Origin: Clytia hemisphaerica
Lineage: Eukaryota; Cnidaria; Hydrozoa; Leptothecata; Clytiidae
Reading direction: 5' to 3'
Length of the DNA stretch: 64,000 nt
Assembly: GCA_902728285.1 (NCBI GenBank)
Contig: CACVBU010001197.1
Location: 2,009,743 to 2,073,742, forward strand
A model generated the notes under the pieces. That model was not told the DNA's origin. It saw nothing but the letters and a program-made list of their open reading frames with translations, and did no database searches. Each line of letters opens with the position of its first letter. Position 1 is the first letter of the stretch. Positions 6,716 to 27,994 of this stretch are shown here, piece by piece. The translations under genes and the position numbers were made by a program.

Positions 6716-7732
6716 CTATGAACGAAAAAAAAAAGAAGTTAAAAAGACATCAAAAGAATCAGTGGTGCTGTGAAGAGTTCTTCCATCTGGGATCAAGGTA
6801 GATGCTGCACCAGTTGGAGCAATATTGAGGGCTGATCCATTTCGTCTGAATAAACGCCGAGCAATATAGGTAATAGCGTTTATTGTGAAACTTTTGCCTG
6901 TACCACCAAATCCTTGAACAAGGAGGCGTAACGGTTCTGTTTCTTCTTCACCGATGGCAACATCTAACAGCTTTTCTAGGTTGATTGCGATAATAAGCCT
7001 TTGCTTAGGATTCGCCCATAAAAGATTGACATCTGGAAGGTCGTGGTTGTTAAGATGAGTGTTGATCATGTCTTCTGCCTCATCATATTTGTCTTTTAAC
7101 CATGTTTTGGTATCAGCTGGCCATTCGTTGGAATCGAAACATTCTTTGCCATACAGGTTCCAATCAAAGCCTGGTCCACCATCAAAGAGGTTTGCTTCAC
7201 CAATAATGGCATCGAAATTTACATTATTGTTCAGTCTGATATCTCTCAACAATGCTTCTCCAAGTCGCAGGTCGTTATACACGGAATCTTGAGATGACTG
7301 TTGTGAGTCTTGGGAAAGCTGTATAGATGGTGGTTGACTAAGCTGCACATCCCGATTTTCTTGAATTTCATCTTGATTGACATTCCTATTTCTTCGCCTA
7401 TCCCTTTCTACTTTCTTGTCATAATTTTGTTTTGATAAAGCTACGATTTCTTTTAAGAATTCTGGGCAGTCAGGACTGTCGTTGAGGAAATCAGCGAACG
7501 CATCAGAAAATTGTTCTTCTTCATCTTTCAGATCATCTGGTGTTCGCCACGTGCCTTTAGAGTGGATCATTAACTGACCTTTACAAAATTTTTCAGACAG
7601 TGGCCAAATTTGGTTTGACATCTGTTCCAGTAAACAATGGAACATGGTCACGTCCACATGGAGGTTTACATCTGCATATTTTGGTATTGTCATAAAGAGT
7701 CCGATCAGGATCTTCTTGTCGTCGTGATTCAC
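6716..7732 (-). CDS. Helitron PIF1-like helicase domain, truncated after motif Ia
   Basis: The ORF has 338 codons; the useful part begins near the shared stretch SNQIWPLSEKFCKG. Walker A is G-F-G-G-T-G-K-S (residues 274-281), followed by motif Ia I-A-P-T-G-A-A-S and G-R-T-L-H-S, typical of PIF1-family helicases of Helitrons. Motifs II to VI are missing: the frame turns into FFFRS and stops. The reading frame differs by one from the nuclease ORF upstream; the switch lies near 7610-7640. The first 40 codons of this ORF are the shadow frame of the nuclease ORF and not real protein. Confidence 0.85.
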   Translation of the reverse strand: MNHDDKKILIGLFMTIPKYADVNLHVDVTMFHCLLEQMSNQIWPLSEKFCKGQLMIHSKGTWRTPDDLKDEEEQFSDAFADFLNDSPDCPEFLKEIVALSKQNYDKKVERDRRRNRNVNQDEIQENRDVQLSQPPSIQLSQDSQQSSQDSVYNDLRLGEALLRDIRLNNNVNFDAIIGEANLFDGGPGFDWNLYGKECFDSNEWPADTKTWLKDKYDEAEDMINTHLNNHDLPDVNLLWANPKQRLIIAINLEKLLDVAIGEEETEPLRLLVQGFGGTGKSFTINAITYIARRLFRRNGSALNIAPTGAASTLIPDGRTLHSTTDSFDVFLTSFFFRS

Positions 7733-10700
7733 CTAGAAATTGGTCTAAAGGTGTTTCATTAGTAGCATTTTCGTCATTTTTCGGTCCTTTAGAGTTGAGT
7801 TGACGATAGCCACTCAGGCCAACTCGTTGAATCTTGTTTGTTGAATGATAGAGTTGACCACCAGCGTTGATAAAGTCTGCTGCTGCAGACGGGACATCCA
7901 CTATGCCAACAATCTGCATTAAGAGTCGATGGGTAACATTCTTCACAGTTGTGCCAATTTCTGCAGAATCCAACAACTCTCGATAAATGGTGACAAAATC
8001 CTCTGTGCTGCACGCTCCTTTGCAGCAATAGGAACAAATGTACTTGACCAAATTCAACAGATCCTGATCGATCAATGCCTGGCAGTCACAATTGGCCTGC
8101 CAGGAGATGAGCAAAGTTTTAATGTGATTCAGCATTCGAGGGTGATCACGAGGTCCTTCATATCTTGGATGACCACCAGAAACGATGCGAGGTTCAAAGG
8201 GATGCAGTTCTTTACCAGGTGTTTTCTTTGTTATTGGATCTTCTTTACCAAAATGGGAACGACAATAACGTGTTTTAGATTCCTTCTTCTTCTTTTTCAA
8301 ACAATATCCATTGCAAGAGTGCAGTGCGACCATGTTGGCAAGATCTATGTGGAACTCATTCAAATCATCTTCGTTGGTACATGTTTCGAGAGCAGGTACT
8401 GCTAAAGGATCATAGTCAGGGGGGTCTCTTGTTCCTTCTGGAGGCGCCCATCTGTCTTTATTAGGATTCCATTCAAGATCTTCATTTTCTGTTAAAACCT
8501 CTAAGCCACCAGCAGGATGCAAACTCGTGAACATTGGTGAGAATACCCCATCAGAATTCTTAGATACAGTTTGAAGCCATTCATGTAATTCTCTTGCTCT
8601 TTGTTCTTCTCCACAATCAAGACTCTCTTCTACCTTTTTGGCATGTTTTTCAGAAAAGATAACACCATGAGAATGGATTTGACCACGTCCTTTGGCAAAC
8701 TCGAATCTGAACCAAAAGGAGTTTGTTTGAAGAAGTTTAGAGATTACAGTATTGTAATAATTGATGGTCCTGGCACTGAAGTAGCTTGTTACAATGTGCT
8801 GGTTTTCGAGCACTGTCTGTCTGAAGAACCTTGAATCAGTTGAAAGCCGATCATAATAGTCTTGCTGATTAATGCCGCATGATTGGGCCTTATACCTGGA
8901 CAGTATTAAGGCTAGAGACGTCCAATGGAACTCTGCCATGGAGTTCGTATGGAAGTATGCGGGTAAATCACCAAACTCCTTTCTGCGATAGTGCACAAAT
9001 GCTTCAAGCTCTTTTTTTCTTTCTACCCAGTAAGGGTGGGTATTGACAAGATTACCACCCATCTTTAGGATCTTGAGTGGGACACTCTGATCATTGTTTT
9101 CATTCAGATTTGTTCTGAGTTCGTCAATTGTCAGATGTGCATCATTCAACTGCTGGGCGACCAAAAAGCTTCCTTGGTCAAGTGCCTGTTGCCGCAATTT
9201 CAGGTTATGGAGAAGAAATTTCAGAAATGGATGCTTTGGAACACGATCTTCCCCAACAAAATAAATATGTTGTATCCATTCGTCGAGATGTACAGTTACC
9301 AACTTCTTGCAGGTGATGTCACAACTTCCATTGACAAAGATGTCAGGAGCAACCATGGTAAAAAAACCAGGCGTTTTCAATTCCTTTATTGGAACTTCTC
9401 GAGTTCGATCCCAATCAGCGGATGCAACACCGCCTTGATGTAGAATTTCTTCAGATCCAGTCATTTTTTGTATGATCATCTTGAGCTCCTTATCAGCATC
9501 CTGTGGATCGACAGGACAGGTGATGCCTGACCCAGTAACACTGTCATCTCCCTCGTTGAATGGAATGAAAAATTGATTGGGAGCAGGTCCTTTTTCATCT
9601 TCTGTCATGTCCTCCTGTGTTTCAACAACTTTTAGTCCTGGCAGCTGAGCGGCCTCGTCTGGAAGTTGATTTATTCTATCTTGATGGATGACTGTGTCAG
9701 CATAATATGAATTGGGGAAGTATTGAAAGTATCTTCCATTCAGCTGAACACCCATACAGTTTGGCCCATCATATTTTTGGGTCTCAGGCTGTTCATCTTC
9801 ATAGCCTCCATTTGGATATCCAAAGCAAAGTCCATTCAGTGCTTGCTCAACTTTATGCCTCCTAACACCATATTGCTTACTGGTGATGTTTTGATTTTTC
9901 CTTTTCAAAATGATTACACCAATCTCCTCTGGCAGCAATGGTAGGTGTTTAGCTATCGACATCTTGTTAGGGATGCTGACACTGTGACCTTTACTTGAGA
10001 GCATACCATAACGAAGTAGATGAATATTAGTACATACAGTGATTTTAGCAATCATCAATCTCTCAACCATGGTAAGGTGTTGAAGAAAAGGTGGCGTGGG
10101 AAGAAAATGCATTCCATTGTGACGGATCCTGTCTGAAGATGGCCCCAAATCTTTATCATCAGTTGTAAGGTGTCCAGAAAACTTTGCAGGTTTCTTCAGG
10201 GATGCTTGTTTTTCCTTACCCTTGTTGGAGCTATTGTTCCTCTTGTTTATTCTGTTTGACTCAGAGGTTCTTTTTGTTCGATCCTTTCGACATCGATCAC
10301 AAATGCCAGCTTTGTTAACCTTCCAGACCTTTATTTTGACACGTGCTTGAGCATTGTTATAGGATGGGTTGTATACTGGACGTGTTTCTCTGCATACTAC
10401 ACATGTCGCCACGCCATGATTATTTTCACCCTCCAAAAAGTCAATAACTGATTGACCAACTTCAGGATTTGGGTGAAGAGAGTCAAACACATGGCCATCG
10501 GGCTGGACAGCATCGTTACCAGGTACAGGATTAATATCCACATCCATTGGAATAGGTGGGTTTTGATCCTCTATGATTGGGATATCTGGCTGTAAAGGAT
10601 CCTCTTGTGGATTTTCAATAGGGACGTCAATATTGTCAGCAACATTGTCTTTTCGGCATTGTTGCAAATTTTTCAAGTCACCTAAATCATCTTGCTTCTG

Positions 10701-11852
10701 CTGCTTTATTTTTCTTCTTTGATATTTGATTTTATTCTTTATCTTTTTTGTGCGTGATTTGGTTTGTTCGTCTGTTTCATTATTAGCAGGTTGAACATAG
10801 GGAACATTATTGTCTTGACATTGTTGAAGGAGTTTTTTTTCAGCCAATCGAGACTTTGAATGTGAAATATGGTGATGTTTGTAACGTCTTTGTTTACTAT
10901 CAGACCCACTACTGTGTTTACCACGCGCAGATATACTAAAGTCCATTTCCATTTCATCACAATCATCAAAAAAGAAGATTGGTTGAAGACAGTTGCCTCC
11001 CTCAAAATGCAATATTGTTTCATTTGTTGGTACTAATGACTGAAAATGGTCGTTGTTGGAAGATGCCAAAAACATCTCTATGCCAGAAGAAGCCGCAGGG
11101 TTCAAATCAAAATACGGTCTATCTTGTGTGCTTGTTTCACAGGTGATGCGGATATTTACATCCAAATAATAGGCAGTTGCAAGACAGAGAATGTACTCAG
11201 CATAAACTGCATTCTTTTCTTGATTTGCCAAAAATATTTCCCAATGATCACCCCCAAGATTAATTTGGTTTTGCATAATGACGTTTTGTAATCCGAAATT
11301 CTGGACTATATGATAAAAGTCTGTATCAGGCTGCATGTCTTTAAGAAATTTGACAACTGCTTTTCTTAACTCTCCAATGTCTGTGTATCTTCGATCTTCA
11401 GGGAGTCCTTCATAAACAGCACCTCGGTGTATTTGCTCTACGATGGCATGGAAAAAACAGTTACCATCTCCGGGTGTTGGACTGTGATGCGAGACATCAA
11501 GACCAATGAAGCGTGCTTGGGCAACCATATAATATGCTCTCTTTGCAATTCGTTCTTTTGGAGAAGGCACCCTTGCCATTTTAGAATTACTTGTTTGAAG
11601 GGAGTTTTCAACATCAAATGGTAAAACACTTTCTTCTGTTGAAGGTACGAGGGACTGAAATAGATTATAATCTGATGATGACAAAAACATCTGAATGCCA
11701 GAAGAAGCTCCAGGGTGCAATTCAAAATATGGAATGTTTTGAGTGCTTGATTGACTAGTGATCAAAATGTTGACATCTAAAAAAAAGGCAGCTGCAACAC
11801 GAATAAGGAAATCAGCCTTGGTTTCGTTCTTCTCTTGATTAGCCAAATACAT
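7593..11852 (-). CDS. Helitron RepHel-type protein: OTU protease, DUF6570-like region and HUH nuclease (helicase frame-shifted off)
   Basis: An uninterrupted ORF of 1419 codons. Residues 1-75 are the tail of the first OTU domain. Residues about 97-275 form a second, complete-looking OTU domain with D-G-N-C132-F and His269. Two CxxC pairs (about 484-487 and 518-521) suggest a zinc-binding linker. Residues about 570-700 resemble the DUF6570 region that precedes the nuclease in animal Helitrons. The HUH motif is G-Q-I-H1060-S-H1062-G within the Helitron-like N domain, and the tyrosine motif is Y1271-I-C-S-Y1275-C-C-K1278. HUH enzymes nick one strand and attach to it through tyrosine during rolling-circle transposition (family knowledge). 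The protein ends in a different frame from the helicase, which overlaps it at 7593-7732. The mapped start lies inside the old OTU1 domain, so it is not the ancestral start. Confidence 0.93.
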   Translation of the reverse strand: MYLANQEKNETKADFLIRVAAAFFLDVNILITSQSSTQNIPYFELHPGASSGIQMFLSSSDYNLFQSLVPSTEESVLPFDVENSLQTSNSKMARVPSPKERIAKRAYYMVAQARFIGLDVSHHSPTPGDGNCFFHAIVEQIHRGAVYEGLPEDRRYTDIGELRKAVVKFLKDMQPDTDFYHIVQNFGLQNVIMQNQINLGGDHWEIFLANQEKNAVYAEYILCLATAYYLDVNIRITCETSTQDRPYFDLNPAASSGIEMFLASSNNDHFQSLVPTNETILHFEGGNCLQPIFFFDDCDEMEMDFSISARGKHSSGSDSKQRRYKHHHISHSKSRLAEKKLLQQCQDNNVPYVQPANNETDEQTKSRTKKIKNKIKYQRRKIKQQKQDDLGDLKNLQQCRKDNVADNIDVPIENPQEDPLQPDIPIIEDQNPPIPMDVDINPVPGNDAVQPDGHVFDSLHPNPEVGQSVIDFLEGENNHGVATCVVCRETRPVYNPSYNNAQARVKIKVWKVNKAGICDRCRKDRTKRTSESNRINKRNNSSNKGKEKQASLKKPAKFSGHLTTDDKDLGPSSDRIRHNGMHFLPTPPFLQHLTMVERLMIAKITVCTNIHLLRYGMLSSKGHSVSIPNKMSIAKHLPLLPEEIGVIILKRKNQNITSKQYGVRRHKVEQALNGLCFGYPNGGYEDEQPETQKYDGPNCMGVQLNGRYFQYFPNSYYADTVIHQDRINQLPDEAAQLPGLKVVETQEDMTEDEKGPAPNQFFIPFNEGDDSVTGSGITCPVDPQDADKELKMIIQKMTGSEEILHQGGVASADWDRTREVPIKELKTPGFFTMVAPDIFVNGSCDITCKKLVTVHLDEWIQHIYFVGEDRVPKHPFLKFLLHNLKLRQQALDQGSFLVAQQLNDAHLTIDELRTNLNENNDQSVPLKILKMGGNLVNTHPYWVERKKELEAFVHYRRKEFGDLPAYFHTNSMAEFHWTSLALILSRYKAQSCGINQQDYYDRLSTDSRFFRQTVLENQHIVTSYFSARTINYYNTVISKLLQTNSFWFRFEFAKGRGQIHSHGVIFSEKHAKKVEESLDCGEEQRARELHEWLQTVSKNSDGVFSPMFTSLHPAGGLEVLTENEDLEWNPNKDRWAPPEGTRDPPDYDPLAVPALETCTNEDDLNEFHIDLANMVALHSCNGYCLKKKKKESKTRYCRSHFGKEDPITKKTPGKELHPFEPRIVSGGHPRYEGPRDHPRMLNHIKTLLISWQANCDCQALIDQDLLNLVKYICSYCCKGACSTEDFVTIYRELLDSAEIGTTVKNVTHRLLMQIVGIVDVPSAAADFINAGGQLYHSTNKIQRVGLSGYRQLNSKGPKNDENATNETPLDQFLGESRRQEDPDRTLYDNTKICRCKPPCGRDHVPLFTGTDVKPNLATV

Positions 11853-11956
11853 CTCCCATTGAGGGCCAGAGAAACGATTTTGATTTTGTTCACAATAATA
11901 TTGGTAAAACGCCGTCTCAGGTGTCAGGTCTCTCAGGAATTCAATGACTGCTATTC

Positions 11957-12157
11957 TTAATTTTCCAATGTCTTCAAATCGTTTTTCCTTTGGAAGTGTG
12001 AAATAAACATTGGGCGATGAATTTGCTCAAGAATAGCATGATAAAAGCAGTTACCATCAGTAGGTGTAGGGCGATGTAGCACCATGTCCAGTCCAATACT
12101 ACAGGCTCGAGCTACCAAAAAGTTTGCTTGTTCAGTCATATTAGATATTTGTGTCAC
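11957..12157 (-). pseudogene. N-terminal half of the first OTU cysteine protease domain of the Helitron (frameshifted)
   Basis: The 66-codon ORF starts MTQISNMTEQANFLVARACS and contains the OTU active-site motif D-G-N-C-F (Cys37), followed by an EQIHR string shared with the second OTU domain. A net one-base loss near 12015 ends it early. The next frame continues with the expected homologous segment and runs into the start of the ORF at 11852, so the two pieces are one ancestral domain. In the continuation the residue aligned with the catalytic His of the second OTU (N-N-D-H-F-Q) is Leu (D-Y-N-L-F-Q), so this copy would lack the catalytic His even without the frameshift. Confidence 0.8.
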
Positions 12158-19080: not shown

Positions 19081-22000
19081 ATGGTTAAAAGCTGTAGTGC
19101 TGTAAAGTTCACTTTGGTGACAAAAAAGACCTGATGGCACTCTAATTCCACTTCACAGCCTTCCTGCAGACAAGAAAAGAAGAAGGGAATGGCTGGCTTT
19201 CTTAAACAGGAAGAAACTTCCAAAAACCGTCCTCATTTGTGGAGACCACTTTGTTGAAGGTAAGAAATGGAACCATAGCCCGGGGGGAGGCAGTGGGTTT
19301 ACCAACTGACGGTATGTGCGGCAAATAAAATGGCTTTTAGAATTGCACCCTTACAGTGCAGAAAACAATCGGTGAGATTCATACCCTTACAGTGCATTTT
19401 TCAAATTTTAAACTCTTTTAGAGCAAAAAAAATCAAGATTTTTGAGCAAAAATTTGCATTTTTTCCTACATTTGCTGAAATTTCCACCCATACAGTGCAT
19501 TTATCAAAAGTCCACCCTTACAGTATATTTCTGATATTTTAAAAAACATACCCTTAACCGCCGCACATACCCGTCGGTCAATTTGCCTGCTCCCCCCCCT
19601 TCGGGAACCATAGTATGGCAAAGATCATTAGATTTGTTTGAAAATAACACAATTTCTCTTTAATAAACATAGCTATGTCAACAGGTAGCCCCTATTTCTA
19701 TAAGTAGATCTAAATGAAATATCAACAAAGACATCTCACATAAAATATTACAAATGGTTTTAGTAACTAACAACAAGGTAGCTATATATATTATGATACA
19801 TATTCTCAACCGGTTTGTGTAAACCGCAGGTTACAGGTCACAGGTTACAGGTTACAGGTCACAGGTCAGTGATGACAGGTTGACTCTAATGAATGTCATT
19901 GCAGAGGAAAATGTTTGGAAAACACAAAAAGTTATCAAAAACATAATTCTCAAGCAATTTCATCCATTAGCCTCCGTCTCAGAACGCGGTCAGAAAATTT
20001 TGCGGATAATTTCACAGCGAAAATGCATCCAGTGAAATGTGAGTAATGTATCATGATTCAAGTCGACTGACATAATTATACACATAATACATGTTACAAG
20101 TTCTGCCTACGGATTCTCAAGCTCAGCTATTATAAAACTATTACATGTTAGTAGCAGACCCGACTGACCAATGTTATGTAGCAGGTTGAAACATGAGTTT
20201 CTACTGGAAAGATGCAGTTTGTTTTCAAGTTAAATCTTCAAAATAAAGCAAACTGTGTGGGTTTCTTTACTTCCAAACAACCTACCAATAGTTTTGGAAC
20301 ACTCCATAATAAAGGAAGATGGCTCTTCTTGTGGATTGGCTTTCTGATACCCCATATAAACACGATGTGACATGAAAGTTAAGAGACATGATTTGTTGGT
20401 TTTTGTTTGATTTGTTGACTCATATATCTCATGGAAAATGGTATAGCAAATGACTTTTCATGTATTGCTTGGCTCTACATGTGATACCTCTAAATTTGAA
20501 CACCTCCAGAATGTTGAAAAAAGCATTTTACGAGATAAGTTTCAATTATAATTTTCATGGAAATTTTTAATCGCCAGATTTGGCTTGGCGTCAGTTTTGT
20601 TTGGTTGATGTTTGGTATTGTGATCATTAAAAGCAATGAAATGCCACACAGTCACTCTACACATGATGCCTCCAGCCATGATTGGTATCTAGAATGTTGG
20701 AAAAAAACATTTTACGAGAAATTGTTGATAGAAATTATATTGACTTATTTTTACAATTTTGGCGGTGTGGGTTTAGTTGGTTGATAATGTTTACACTGTG
20801 GGATGGTTTTCAAAAAACTGTTATTGATTGTTGTTTGTTGGAATTGATTACCAAAAAAAAAGAGAACCTTTTTTTTATAAATACTTTATTTTTTTCATGA
20901 ATCGAAAAAACCGTGTGGATAGTATGTCTTGTAGTAACCAGTGCAGTGTCTGTTTTCAAATTTTGAAAGCTCTTTACCTACTGAATCTGTGAATTGAAGC
21001 TCTGACTAGCTCTATGTTTAAAACTTTGAGCCATGTTTTTTTCTTTGTTGCTATTAAAGATAGATTTTTAAATTGTCGTAATGTAAATTTATGGTAAAGT
21101 TTTAGTTTTTGAGTTTAGTTCATCAGTAGTGCATACAGTAGTATTTTTTCAGCAATCCTTTCTTGTAAATATAGTAACATTTAACCAGACTCACTGCCCT
21201 CATTATATTCAAATTTGTATTTTTTTAGGACTGATAAGTACATATTTTTAAACACCAAAACAAAGCAAACAACATGCCAGTTCTTTCTGGTGTGCTTTGA
21301 GTTCTATTTTAATCAACCCTCTCAACTGCTGATCTTTTAACTATCATTTATGAGTATAGAATGGGCTTTCATAGTACCATTTTCTCTAAGTATTTTGTGC
21401 AAATTTTCAACAAAGAAGTAGACTTCTTGACTGTCCTTGTCCCTTATGTTAAAGTTGTTCTGATCACCAGTACTTATAGCGCTGATGTGAAAATAGGTCT
21501 GCGTGAGGGGAGGTATTCTGCGTGAGTATGAGTTTTCGAAGCTGCAGCGGAGGAGATCATCTTTTATTTCAAAAATTCTCTTTACGGGGGTCAAACATAA
21601 TTTCACGAGCGTGTTTATGTAACTTATTTTTGTTTGATTTTTCTTTATTTGAACAATTATTAAAAGGGTATTCTTCGTTATTATGCATCAAGTAATGGTG
21701 CAATGGAAAATAAAAGATGACTGAATTAGGAAAAGTGAATATAGGTTTTCGTTTTTATAAGCATTATTTGGAGTATAAGATGACTGAATTAGGAAAAGTG
21801 AATATAGGTTTTCTTTTTTATAAGCATTATTTGCAGTTATTTGGAGTATAAGATGACTGAATTAGGAAAAGTGAATATAGGTTTTCTTTTTTATAAGCAT
21901 TATTTGGAGTATAAGATGACTGAATTAGGAAAAGTGAATATAGGTTTTCGTTTTTTCTCAACTTCAGTTGAGCTACAATCTGACAATGTCTGTCTGTGTG

Positions 22001-25000
22001 TGTGTCTGTCTGTCTGTCACAAAAACTTTAGGGCAGCCTGGAGACTTCAAAAATGCTTGGATTTGGCTGAAATTTGGCACACTTGTTCCTTGGGTGAATA
22101 TCTGGGGGTGTTTTTTTCATTTTTTGAAAATTTTGATTTTTGGGGCCTGGGGACGAGTTTTTCGCCAAAACGAGGCTAAAACTTTGGGGCAGGCTGGAGA
22201 CTTCAAAAATGGTTCGATTTGGCTGAAATTTTGCACACTTGTTCCTTGGGTGAATATCTGGGGGTGTTTTTTTCATTTTTCAAAATTTTAGATTTTTGGG
22301 GCCTGGGGACGAGTTTTTCGCCAAAACGAGGCTAAAATTTTGGGGCAGCCTGGAGACTTCAAAAATTGTTCGATCTGGCTGAAATTTTGCACACTTGTTC
22401 TTTGGGTGAATATCTGGGGGTCTTTTTTTCATTTTTCAAAAATTTAGATTTTTGGGGCCTGGGGACGAGTTTTTCGCCAAAACGAGGCTAAAATTTTGGG
22501 GCAGCCTGGAGACTTCAAAAATTGTTCGATCTGTCTGAAATTTTGCACACTTGTTCTTTGGGTGAATATCTGGGGGTGCTTTTTGCACTTTTCAAAAATT
22601 TAGATTTTTGGGGCCTGGGGACGAGTTTTTTGCCAAAACGAGGCTAAAGCTTTGAAGCAGCCTACAGCCCTCCAAAATGGTCGATTTGGTTGAAATTTGG
22701 CACACTTGTTCATTGGGTAAATATCTGGGGGTCTACAATTGGGCCTATGAATAATTTGAAGCCACTGAAGTTGAGCCCAGTGCGTTGCGCACGTTCGACT
22801 ATATAAGCATTATTTGGAGTATAAGATGACTGAATTACGAAAAGTGAATATAGGTTTTCGTTTTTATAAGCATTATTTGGAGTATAAGATGACTGAATTA
22901 GGATGTTATTAAGCAGCAGCTTTGGTTCATTGAAATGAAAACCTATTTTCACTGCGCCGTATTTTTGACAACGTTTAACAGGGAACTAAGGCTCGTTTAA
23001 AGATAAAACCTATTTTCACTCTGCTGTAATTTCCACAACATTTAGATGGAGCCAAGACACACGCTGTTTTATAAGAATGGTGTAAATCCATTATAAAATA
23101 TAATACTTATAAAATATTCTTACAGTTACAGCATTCTTAGGTTACGATCATATTTCAGACTTGATTTAACATTTAGTACTTACGTCTCAAGCATAAAATG
23201 GCATTTTATGAAAGAAGTGAGCCTTACTGACTGGGGGAATTGACAATTTTATAATTGGAGATGATCTAAAAGTTGGCATTCTTAGCTTGAGTAGCAAATT
23301 TCATGATGGTGATATTATTAGCATATTCTTAACTTTCATCAAGAACATTCTTATAAAGTGTATTCTTTTAAAAAAGAAAGCGTGTATTAAAGGTCTTTAC
23401 TGGAGATGAAACTCTATTTTTACTACCTTATTCTGATAATTTAAAAACACTTTCGTTTCGTTTATAAAATCTTTATAAAGATATTTTTAATACAGTCTAG
23501 CTTTTCACGCCTTATAAGAATTAAAGGTGTCTTTAGATTAAAAACGTTCTTATAATAAAATTCACCTAAACAATAGATTTGCTCATTTGTGAAATCCTTA
23601 GCAAGAAAACTCTACCCCCGTGTTAGAAAAGTCACAACGTAGGAGAGACAGTAAATAGCACATCTGTTGATCTATTGTTTACTACTTTTTCCCTCTCTCT
23701 ATTGAAACCCATTTTCACTTCAACACCTATTCTCACGCAATTACCTATTTTAACTCAAGCGCTGAAAGTACTTCTCGTTCTGATGGAGAACATTGCTATT
23801 TTTGGTAGCCTTCACATATCAATAAGGAGCTTTGGTGTAAATGTTTTTTCTGATGAAATCATACTAATCTGAAACTATTAGGCCTTTATGAACTTTCTAG
23901 AACAATAATCTTGCTCCAATCTTGAGAAACACTGGAAAAATAGGTTAGCATTCCCTGCCATAATTTCACAGATTTCCTCTGCTTTCTGCTTGAAAACGCT
24001 GTCGTATAGCCGAAAACGAAAGTGAAACTGTGAAAACGTCCGCAAATTCGGGCCCAGTCCTCTTCCGAGACGGAGGCTAATATAAAACCATTTCAAACAT
24101 CAAAATTTAACCATGTGCTTTTATCGATCTTTCGCAGTTTGCGCCGTGTATAACGCAGACCAGAAAATATTTGAAACCATATTATACGTATAACAGGTAT
24201 ATTACAAATTGTAATGTTTGTAATGTTATATATGATGGTTACATATAATAAAACACATCGCTCTAAAACTACCTTCTCAGAGAACTCACGAGCTTCTGAT
24301 TGGTGTAATTTTATATCCAGCCATATTGTTATCATCACATTCGGCATGCTAATTATTTTTGGTGTTTTTCTCTTGTAAGACATGATATTTTGTGATTCCG
24401 TCAATATTTTTGTCAAAATTTGTCATTAAGTCATTAAAATAACAATTGAATGATTAATTAGTTTCATCCTTCTAAAACCACTGTCTTAGGGACCTCACAA
24501 GCTTCTGATTGGTGCCGTTTTATATCCATTCACACTATCAACATCACATTCTGTATAATAAATATTTTTCGTGCTTTTGTCTTGTTAGGCATAATATTTT
24601 ATGATTTTGTCATTATTTTTGTAAGTAAGTGTCACTAGGTAGTTATTCTATTCAATTGTCATTTTAAAATATCTAAATAACATCTATTACTTTTTTGTAA
24701 TTTAATGCGTTATGTATTGATGTTATGTTATGTATATGTTATGATCTTAATATCTTTTTTCCAGTTTGCACTTTGTTGACCTGTAACCTGTGACCTGTAA
24801 CCTGTGACCTGTAACCTGTAACCTGCGACCTGTAACCTGCGGTTTACACAAACCGTATTCTCAACTATCATATAATGCATCATTATTTACAAGTAGAAAT
24901 AAGTAGACTTTCTTTTTATATTTTCAGGGAAAAAGAGTCAATGGAAAGAACATCCAGATAACGTCCCCACAATTGCAAAGCTAACAGCAAAACAAAAACA

Positions 25001-25217
25001 CCAATCAATAACTTCATTGTCAACATCTGCACCTCCCAAGGCCAAGCCATGTACAACTTCTTCATCCACTAAGAAAGGTAGGAAATCACTAAAACGTACA
25101 GAAAGGCATAGAAAATTAATTGATCGCAGGATTAACCCCATTTCACGTAAAAAAAGGAAGACAAAGTCAACGAAAGACGAAAGACCACCCGATGAAGTGG
25201 CACCACCTACTACATAG
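19081..25217 (+). CDS. THAP zinc-finger protein, two exons, intron carries a 5-kb transposon; first exon frameshifted
   Basis: Exon 1 begins at ATG 19081 (MVKSCSAV) and ends at donor GAAG|GTAAGA (19259). Exon 2 starts after TTTTCAG at 24928, phase 1 on both sides, and ends at TAG (25217). Across the junction the protein reads VLICGDHFVEGKKSQWKEHP and then DNVPTI: the C-x2-H pair and following His-Pro of a C2CH THAP DNA-binding domain. Upstream, PDGTLIPLHSLPADKKRRRE with EWLAFL is the middle of the domain. The first Cys pair (SC-SAV) is in another frame, and small indels are needed between 19104 and 19125 to connect them. The remaining ~70 residues are Lys/Arg-rich, without a transposase domain. 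It is either a decayed gene or one with assembly errors. THAP domains occur both in host regulators and in P-element-like transposases. Confidence 0.72.
19281..19605. mobile_element. MITE-like element, GTATGTGCGG family (copy in THAP intron)
   Basis: Imperfect terminal inverted repeats: the left end reads GGGGGGAGGCAGTGGGTTTACC...GACGGTATGTGCGGC, and the right end is the inverse (GCCGCACATACCCGTCGGTC...GCTCCCCCCC). The interior holds several CACCCTTACAGTGCA blocks. The same structure recurs at 58970-59300, with related versions at 27995-28400, 33070-33310, 39155-39415 and 62880-62980. Confidence 0.65.
21714..21960 (+). repeat. Tandem 62-bp repeats (four units; two further units at 22821-22905)
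   Basis: Units start AAGATGACTGAATTAGGAAA at 21714, 21777, 21850 and 21913, and again at 22821 and 22884. The second pair lies on the other side of the 156-bp array, so the array appears to have been inserted into, or expanded within, the 62-bp repeat. The ORFs across it are incidental. Confidence 0.85.
22029..22745 (+). repeat. Tandem 156-bp repeat array (about 4.6 units)
   Basis: Units begin near 22029, 22185, 22342, 22498 and 22656 at the string GGCAGCCTGGAGACTTC. Each contains GTTCCTTGGGTGAATATCTG and a GGGGCCTGGGGACGAG block ending in TTTTTCGCC. A GT/CTGTCTGT microsatellite (21985-22018) leads in. The array is bracketed by an inverted pair AACTTCAGTTGAGC (about 21959) and CTGAAGTTGAGC (about 22764, partly inverted), which suggests a composite nested insert. 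No coding support. Confidence 0.85.
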
Positions 25218-25504
25218 GAGATAATGAATGCTCAGGAGGAAAAAATCAAGACACCATTCAAGAGAAAACTAACCGAATTAGTGATTTAGAAGTCAACATT
25301 TCACGACAATCTAAGAAAATCAAAATTTTGGAAAGAAATTTAAAATTATCGAGAAATAAGACATTATTTTTGACGCGCAGTTGTCAAAACCTTAAATGGA
25401 GGAATTCACGATTGATCGGCAGAAACTCTTTCTTGAATAAACAATACAGTAACAATTAACATAAAATAAGAATACTCTTGAAAGTCAGCTGTTTAAGCAA
25501 AATC

Positions 25505-27309: not shown

Positions 27310-27736
27310 NNNNNNNNNNNNNNNNNNNNNNNNNNNNNNNNNNNNNNNNNNNNNNNNNNNNNNNNNNNNNNNNNNNNNNNNNNNNNNNNNNNNNNNNNNN
27401 NNNNNNNNNNNNNNNNNNNNNNNNNNNNNNNNNNNNNNNNNNNNNNNNNNNNNNNNNNNNNNNNNNNNNNNNNNNNNNNNNNNNNNNNNNNNNNNNNNNN
27501 NNNNNNNNNNNNNNNNNNNNNNNNNNNNNNNNNNNNNNNNNNNNNNNNNNNNNNNNNNNNNNNNNNNNNNNNNNNNNNNNNNNNNNNNNNNNNNNNNNNN
27601 NNNNNNNNNNNNNNNNNNNNNNNNNNNNNNNNNNNNNNNNNNNNNNNNNNNNNNNNNNNNNNNNNNNNNNNNNNNNNNNNNNNNNNNNNNNNNNNNNNNN
27701 NNNNNNNNNNNNNNNNNNNNNNNNNNNNNNNNNNNN
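27310..27736. other. Assembly gap (427 N)
   Basis: Run of undetermined bases. The left flank is the palindrome arm; the right flank is a (TG)n run followed by a G-run. Reading frames through the gap are meaningless. Confidence 1.
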
Positions 27737-27994
27737 TGTGTGTGTGTGTGTGGGGGGGGGGATATTAAAACGTCGACCATTTGGCTGGCAGTTGGTGTTC
27801 AACTTTTAAGTATTTAAGTAAGTAATTAATTGATTAAATTACACTACGTCAGTGACTTTAGTGTGTACCAGTTCTTTTAATTTTTAGGGGAAAGTCAAAG
27901 GTATCTCTTGCTTTATCAATTACATTACAGTTGACAGTAAAGGCCAAAAAGGGATAGAAAGGGGTAATCTGATGGGATTTTGGTTCAGCAAAAT

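What the first reader, a model, noticed from the sequence alone, without database searches (positions are those of the whole stretch)
19801..24865. 5-kb transposon with hairpin ends, telomere-like internal tandem repeats and a perfect 10-bp target duplication
Ends are CGGTTTGTGTAAACCG (perfect hairpin, GTGT loop) followed by arrays of CAGGTTACAGGTCA-type repeats facing inward, and TATTCTCAAC flanks both sides. No transposase is visible. The combination of a terminal hairpin, subterminal minisatellite and 10-bp duplication resembles MULE/Rehavkus or foldback elements but matches none exactly. It could be a little-described non-autonomous family.
Basis: partly seen in the sequence, partly recalled or inferred. 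Interest (0 to 1): 0.7.

Follow-up and report, generated by a model that had tools for sequence, protein, structure and literature searches.

The report
Defective Mutator-like transposon with nested insertion
The 5-kb element is a short, non-coding relative of a Mutator-type jumping gene, swollen by a second transposon that later landed inside it; this architecture is already known from mosquitoes, so it is a new family of a known kind.

Summary
Both ends carry CGGTTTGTGTAAACCG followed by inward arrays of a 7-bp unit (CAGGTTA/CAGGTCA), and TATTCTCAAC flanks both sides. The unnamed 417-Mb host genome holds 64 + 63 exact copies of the tip and none of the control. Of 37 short copies with both ends scored, 32 have a perfect 9-bp target duplication, 4 have 9 bp with one mismatch, 1 has 8 bp; the window's 10 bp is the outlier.

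The 5-kb unit is a nest. In 19 of 20 fetched copies the left and right parts are directly joined, and BLAST joins them in the twentieth. The extra 4,112 bp (19968-24079) is a different TIR transposon with an AT duplication, itself interrupted by a Helentron-like block.

Three 9.5-11.5-kb copies with the same tips carry pieces of a multi-exon MULE-type transposase. So this is a non-autonomous Mutator-like (MULE), foldback-type element. The architecture (palindromic tip, subterminal tandem repeats, 8-9-bp duplication) is that of Muta1 from Aedes aegypti (PMC5225508). New family, known kind.

The parts
19801..19810 (.). Left target-site duplication TATTCTCAAC (10 bp)
24856..24865 (.). Right target-site duplication TATTCTCAAC (10 bp)
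19811..19826 (+). Terminal palindrome CGGTTT-GTGT-AAACCG, left
   Evidence: 64 forward + 63 reverse exact copies genome-wide, control 0/0
24840..24855 (-). Terminal palindrome, right
19827..19868 (+). Left subterminal array: six 7-bp units CAGGTTA/CAGGTCA
24777..24839 (-). Right subterminal array: nine 7-bp units
19811..19967 (+). Left part of the outer element, a non-autonomous MULE
   Evidence: Matched at 93-99% in each of the 20 fetched copies L009-L028
24080..24855 (+). Right part of the outer element; directly joined to the left part in 19 of 20 fetched copies, and by BLAST in the twentieth, L028
19968..24079 (+). Nested 4,112-bp TIR transposon (TAGCCTCCGTCTC...), with 2-bp AT duplications at 19966-19967 and 24080-24081
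   Evidence: Empty site; coordinates and ends; genome copies; AT/AT flanks in 7 of 8 other copies
19968..19984 (+). TIR of the nested element, left (17 bp, 1 mismatch to the right)
24063..24079 (-). TIR of the nested element, right
21956..22801 (+). Third layer: Helentron/HINE-like block (subterminal inverted repeats, GTCT microsatellite, 4.6 copies of a 156-bp unit, 3' palindrome) inserted T|T in a 63-bp tandem repeat of the nested element
   Evidence: Ends and flanks; arrays; anatomy compared by eye with passages of PMC7492417; genome copies not tested

Best explanation
A non-autonomous Mutator-like element (MULE) of the palindromic-tip, subterminal-repeat (foldback type 2) architecture. Its transposase was supplied in trans by long relatives with the same ends. 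SHOWN: the same exact tip at 127 places; 9-bp target duplications around short copies; long copies with the same tips that otherwise share with the window element, at the BLAST threshold used, only a 57-bp piece of the inner repeat block; MULE-type DDE transposase pieces in the long copies. INFERRED: the transposase recognises the terminal palindrome and the 7-bp array, cuts at the element ends and joins them to a target with a 9-bp (8-10) stagger; the window copy inserted with a 10-bp stagger. Afterwards a second transposon that duplicates AT, as ISL2EU elements do, jumped into the copy; it already held, or later received, a Helentron-like block. At least two of the three long copies carry stops and frame shifts, so the family may no longer move unless an intact copy lies in the parts not read.
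For: Exact tip at 64 forward + 63 reverse places, control 0/0. Target duplication: 14 perfect 9-bp, 4 with one mismatch and 1 of 8 bp among 19 copies; 18 of 18 further pairs perfect at 9 bp, three of these being one duplicated insertion. Control: of 306 swapped pairs 6 were perfect at 8 bp or more, which is the number of swaps possible among those three identical-flank copies, and 10 in all (4 more) came within one mismatch at 8, 9 or 10 bp. Window left part at 93-99% in the 20 copies L009-L028; outer parts 76-98% identical to 18 copies aligned. Long copies C472 (10,054 bp), C555 (11,471 bp, perfect 9-bp TAGTATTTT) and C677 (9,526 bp, 9 bp with one mismatch by eye): the best match at each end of C472 and C555 covers 49-63 bp of the window's ends at 91-98%; C677's tips were read. 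Transposase: the long-copy ORF scores PF10551 MULE at E 0.005, below cut-off. Of four relatives taken from its tblastn list, L047 (E 3.8e-8) passes PF10551 (32.3 against 27.6 bits) and hits Transposase_mut at E 0.0016; L044 and L045 are just below (25.8 and 23.6 bits); L046 has no MULE hit. Invariant D, D and CxxH in the 6-row alignment A1; NAIESTH for the E in the next exon; W between second D and E in L029, L043, L044, L045 and L047 (by eye).
Against: The family's own transposase stays below the Pfam cut-off, as do relatives L042 (15.3 bits), L044 and L045; the MULE identity rests on one of four relatives passing and on shared residues. Relative L039 has a stop at the W position and lacks the ES stretch. 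One C-terminal piece of C555 gives a weak FYVE/PHD-type zinc-finger hit (PF21272, E 0.083, 13.4 against 27 bits), so the zinc-finger type is open. TIRs are short for a MULE (about 60-80 bp). That the long copies mobilised the short ones is inferred from shared ends alone. C472 has no duplication: its left flank is the reverse complement of C677's right flank, so the two descend from one insertion.
Confidence: 0.9

Rival explanations
1. A Rehavkus element, or a non-autonomous derivative of one.
For: Minisatellite-like arrays next to the TIR and 9-bp duplications (passages of PMC6446971). A weak FYVE/PHD-type zinc-finger hit in one C-terminal piece (PF21272, E 0.083, below cut-off; not in the matching piece of C472).
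Against: Rehavkus is described there with a PHD finger and a minisatellite before the 3' TIR. Here the arrays lie inside the TIR at both ends, and the long copies show a SWIM-like CxC...CxH split by an intron (by eye).
Confidence: 0.08
2. A true 5-kb element of which the 930-bp copies are internal-deletion derivatives.
For: The window copy has both ends and a perfect duplication.
Against: The junction is exactly an AT duplication around a 17-bp TIR; the insert's ends occur elsewhere, with 40 of 40 scored matches starting at its first base or the one beside it, and AT/AT flanks in 7 of 8 copies.
Confidence: 0.01
3. A foldback or Galileo-like (P superfamily) element with convergent TIR repeats.
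For: Palindromic tip and tandem repeats in the TIR.
Against: 9-bp duplications (Galileo 7 bp, recalled); long copies encode MULE-type DDE pieces.
Confidence: 0.01

Closest known systems
Muta1 and relatives, Aedes aegypti (PMC5225508; passages read)
   Same: Palindromic terminal motif, then subterminal tandem repeats; 8-9-bp duplication; transposase with introns; many non-autonomous copies, most sharing only the TIR.
   Different: Muta1: 10-bp imperfect palindrome, 9 x 12-bp repeats with spacers, TIR 145 bp, 3.2 kb, active in yeast. Here: 16-bp perfect 6-bp stem with 4-nt loop, up to nine 7-bp units without spacers, TIR about 60-80 bp, 9.5-11.5-kb long copies. Transposase sequences could not be compared.
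Phantom group of MULEs (PMC6446971 and PMC13359780; passages)
   Same: 8-10-bp duplication; SWIM finger in some; the 2026 paper names a Phantom_Muta2 clade.
   Different: Sequences not on hand, so placement is untested.
Rehavkus (PMC6446971; passages)
   Same: 9-bp duplication, minisatellite near the TIR.
   Different: Described with a PHD finger and a minisatellite before the 3' TIR; here two-sided arrays and a SWIM-like motif by eye, with a weak FYVE/PHD-type hit left open.
ISL2EU (PMC4482050; passages), for the nested element only
   Same: 2-bp AT duplication.
   Different: Reported target A|AT|T; here that pattern is not kept. No ISL2EU protein was sought.
Cg_HINE / Helentron non-autonomous elements of Pacific oyster (PMC7492417; passages), for the inner block only
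   Same: Subterminal inverted repeats, GTCY microsatellite, satellite-like array, 3' palindrome, T|T insertion without duplication.
   Different: Sequence not compared; copies in this genome not tested.

Membership tests
MULE (Mutator-like) superfamily | 8-11-bp target duplication | tested here: met
   9 bp in 36 of 37 scored short copies (4 with a mismatch), 8 in one, 10 in the window
MULE (Mutator-like) superfamily | DDE transposase of the MULE domain (PF10551) | tested here: inconclusive
   Best Pfam hit but below cut-off in the family itself (17.6 and 15.8 against 27.6 bits); one of four relatives found by it (L047) passes; D, D, CxxH invariant in six rows
[quoted passage not shown]
   CxxH invariant in A1; W by eye in 5 sequences, a stop there in L039; feature taken from PMC5225508
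MULE (Mutator-like) superfamily | Long TIR (>100 bp; typical, not strict) | tested here: not met
   71 nt at 92% in the window, 61 nt in C472. Typical, not defining: 2 of 14 Aedes families have TIRs under 60 bp
Muta1-type foldback (type 2) MULE | Terminal palindrome plus subterminal tandem repeats at both ends | tested here: met
Muta1-type foldback (type 2) MULE | Transposase clusters with Muta sequences | not testable with these tools
   No Muta sequence on hand
Rehavkus | PHD finger in the transposase | tested here: inconclusive
   Ten pieces of two long copies: one FYVE/PHD-type hit (PF21272) at E 0.083, 13.4 against 27 bits, none in the matching piece of the other copy
Rehavkus | Minisatellite before the 3' TIR | tested here: inconclusive
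   Arrays are present, but at both ends and inside the TIR
ISL2EU (nested element) | 2-bp AT duplication | tested here: met
   Window empty site and 7 of 8 other copies; C355 has CG/AA
ISL2EU (nested element) | Target A|AT|T | tested here: not met
   Of the 7 AT/AT copies, A precedes in 4 and T follows in 1
ISL2EU (nested element) | THAP transposase plus YqaJ protein in autonomous copies | not tested
   Autonomous partner not sought

The most novel reading that the evidence does not exclude
The subterminal arrays are runs of AGGTTA/AGGTCA hexamers spaced by one base, the layout of DR1 sites for nuclear receptors (recalled, not tested). If host HNF4/RXR-type receptors bind them, each new copy would bring receptor sites to its place, and the element's expression or movement could be tied to host hormone or metabolic signals.
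Probability: 0.05. Interest if true: 0.55.

Novelty: new member of a known kind. Interest (0 to 1): 0.25.

Why it matters
It shows the Muta1-like architecture (palindromic tip plus tandem repeats) in a separate genome, with long transposase-bearing copies and many short ones side by side, which is useful for asking what the palindrome and repeats do. It also gives a clear nest of three transposon types whose order of arrival can be read.

Tried and rejected
Rejected: a single 5-kb element (empty site). Rejected: simple deletion derivative of the long copies, since beyond the ends only a 57-bp piece of the inner repeat block matches C472 and C555 at E 1e-5; C677 was compared with C472 and with the nested insert, not with the whole window element. 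Telomere-like: the array resembles the fission-yeast telomere repeat (recalled), but its place inside a TIR with flanking duplications explains it. Nuclear-receptor reading: a literature search for tip and array letters found 28 papers, 20 listed; none of those 20 titles or abstract starts concerns such a transposon. The one HNF4A paper among them, opened at the match, holds it only in a qPCR primer. A search for Mutator, transposon, terminal inverted repeat, nuclear receptor and AGGTCA together found 0 papers.

L034, fetched for the second end of L020, was not analysed. L020 (one end found) was left out of the duplication count. L035 (C659) was not scored; by eye it is 9 bp with one mismatch (sequence printed).

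Full report
What is there. At 19811-24855 an element begins and ends with CGGTTTGTGTAAACCG, a perfect 6-bp stem with a GTGT loop. Behind each tip runs an array of a 7-bp unit, CAGGTTA or CAGGTCA, six on the left and nine on the right. The inverted repeat is 71 nt at 92%. TATTCTCAAC stands on both sides.

Other copies. The exact 16-base tip occurs 64 times forward and 63 times reverse, and the control pattern 0 times (only the first 100 places are listed, and some listed tips have no partner nearby). A search with window 19790-19900 gave 41 matches, 40 of 718 candidates being scored; 25 of the 41 start at query base 21 or 22, which is the element's first base or the one before it, and the others, apart from the window itself, start up to 16 bases earlier. 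I fetched 20 of these places at up to 10 kb. In 19 of the 20 both ends were found by motif: 14 have perfect 9-bp duplications, 4 have 9 bp with one mismatch, 1 has 8 bp. Of these 19, 6 are 907-930 bp long, 7 are 1,110-1,167 bp, and the rest 663, 1,398, 1,400, 1,451, 2,195 and 4,494 bp. In all 21 copies read for it, the window and L035 included, the left array has 5 or 6 units; the right one reaches nine, and the count there stops early where a unit is changed. A further 18 end pairs, the unfetched pairs at element-like spacing in the list, are all perfect at 9 bp; three of them are one insertion duplicated on C230. Of 306 swapped pairs, 6 were perfect at 8 bp or more, the number of swaps possible among those three identical-flank copies, and 10 in all came within one mismatch at 8, 9 or 10 bp. 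The window's 10 bp is thus an outlier in a 9-bp family.

The 5 kb is a nest. In 19 of the 20 fetched copies the left 157 bp run straight into the right part through CATCCATATAAAACC or a one-base variant; the twentieth, L028, was missed by that pattern but is joined at the same base in BLAST. In the window the same place reads CATCCAT, then TAGCCTCCGTCTCAGAA...TTCCGAGACGGAGGCTA, then ATATAAAACC: a 4,112-bp insert (19968-24079) with 17-bp inverted ends and a 2-bp AT duplication. The insert is a family of its own. Its first 200 bases gave 40 scored matches of 395 candidates, all from query base 1 or 2; 20 are printed as 100%, 7 of them with the full self-match score, the window's own included. 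Its last 181 bases gave 40 of 269; 17 have the full score, the window's own included. The best candidates are scored first, so this does not give the family's average age. AT stands before the left end in 4 of 4 loci read, one being the window's. Eight copies with both ends on one contig are 1.8 to 3.8 kb long by my arithmetic; 7 of 8 have AT on both sides and one (C355) has CG and AA. The short MULE copies have a median pairwise identity of 96.6% (18 short copies plus the window's outer parts, range 70-99%). AT is the duplication reported for ISL2EU elements (PMC4482050, passages), but their A|AT|T target is not kept here, and no protein was sought, so I do not file it there.

A third layer. 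Inside the insert, 21956-22801 breaks a 63-bp tandem repeat between two T's. It has a 5' inverted repeat pair, a GTCT microsatellite, 4.6 copies of a 156-bp unit, and a 3' copy of the inverted repeat followed by a palindrome. This is the anatomy described for oyster HINE elements (PMC7492417, passages). The match is by eye; the search for its copies did not complete.

The transposase. Two long pairs of tips were visible and a third copy came from the protein search. C472 is 10,054 bp, C555 11,471 bp, C677 9,526 bp. C555 has a perfect 9-bp duplication and C677 one with a mismatch (by eye). C472 has none; its left flank is the reverse complement of C677's right flank, so those two descend from one insertion. 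The best match at each end of C472 and C555 covers 49-63 bp of the window's ends at 91-98%; beyond the ends, at E 1e-5, only a 57-bp piece inside the Helentron-like block matches. One long-copy ORF found 84 matches in the genome, 3 at 95% or more and the rest at 64% and below. It scores PF10551 MULE at E 0.005, below the cut-off. Of four relatives fetched from its list, L047 passes the cut-off (32.3 against 27.6 bits) and also hits Transposase_mut, L044 and L045 are just below, and L046 has no MULE hit; L042 is below too. Six sequences aligned keep D, D and CxxH without exception. The E stands in the next exon as NAIESTH, and a W lies between second D and E in five sequences (by eye), while L039 has a stop there. 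A CxC...CxH pair split by an intron looks like a SWIM finger (by eye); one C-terminal piece of C555 gives a weak FYVE/PHD-type hit instead (E 0.083). Against C472, changed codons were 44 non-synonymous to 18 synonymous in C555 and 27 to 12 in C677 over seven open pieces, best match per piece only; both have stops or frame-shifting gaps in some pieces.

How it works. The short and long copies share only their ends, so the ends are what the transposase must recognise; this step is inferred. The 9-bp duplication is the stagger of its cuts. The palindrome plus array is the architecture of Muta1 from Aedes aegypti, a 10-bp imperfect palindrome plus nine 12-bp repeats, which transposes in yeast and has over 300 putative derivatives, most sharing only the TIR (PMC5225508, passages). 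Mechanistically this element most likely works like Muta1; membership in the same clade could not be tested.

Novelty. Four letter strings of the tip and array found 28 papers, of which the 20 listed are about other matters. That is a weak test, and Repbase was not on hand. The family may be undescribed; the kind is described.

Noticed in passing
window 19968-24079: The nested AT-duplicating transposon belongs to a family with many near-identical copies: 20 of 40 scored 5' ends are printed as 100% over 200 bp. Its autonomous partner was not sought.
   Followed up: partly
window 6716-12026 (-): Helitron-like open frames of 338 and 1,477 aa with OTU, DUF6570 and PIF1 hits.
   Followed up: no
window 19121-19309 (+) and 25196-25459 (+): A THAP-like exon and a coiled-coil exon (by eye) flank the element, which may sit in an intron of a THAP gene.
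   Followed up: no
window 30.5-33 kb (-): Repeated chitin-binding-like exons with threonine/histidine-rich tails; CBM_14 was hit in both of the two scanned.
   Followed up: no
G000 C230:237746, 245614, 252858: Three copies of one insertion with identical flanks, about 7-8 kb apart: a tandem duplication carrying the element.
   Followed up: partly
window about 27310-27750: A run of N.
   Followed up: no
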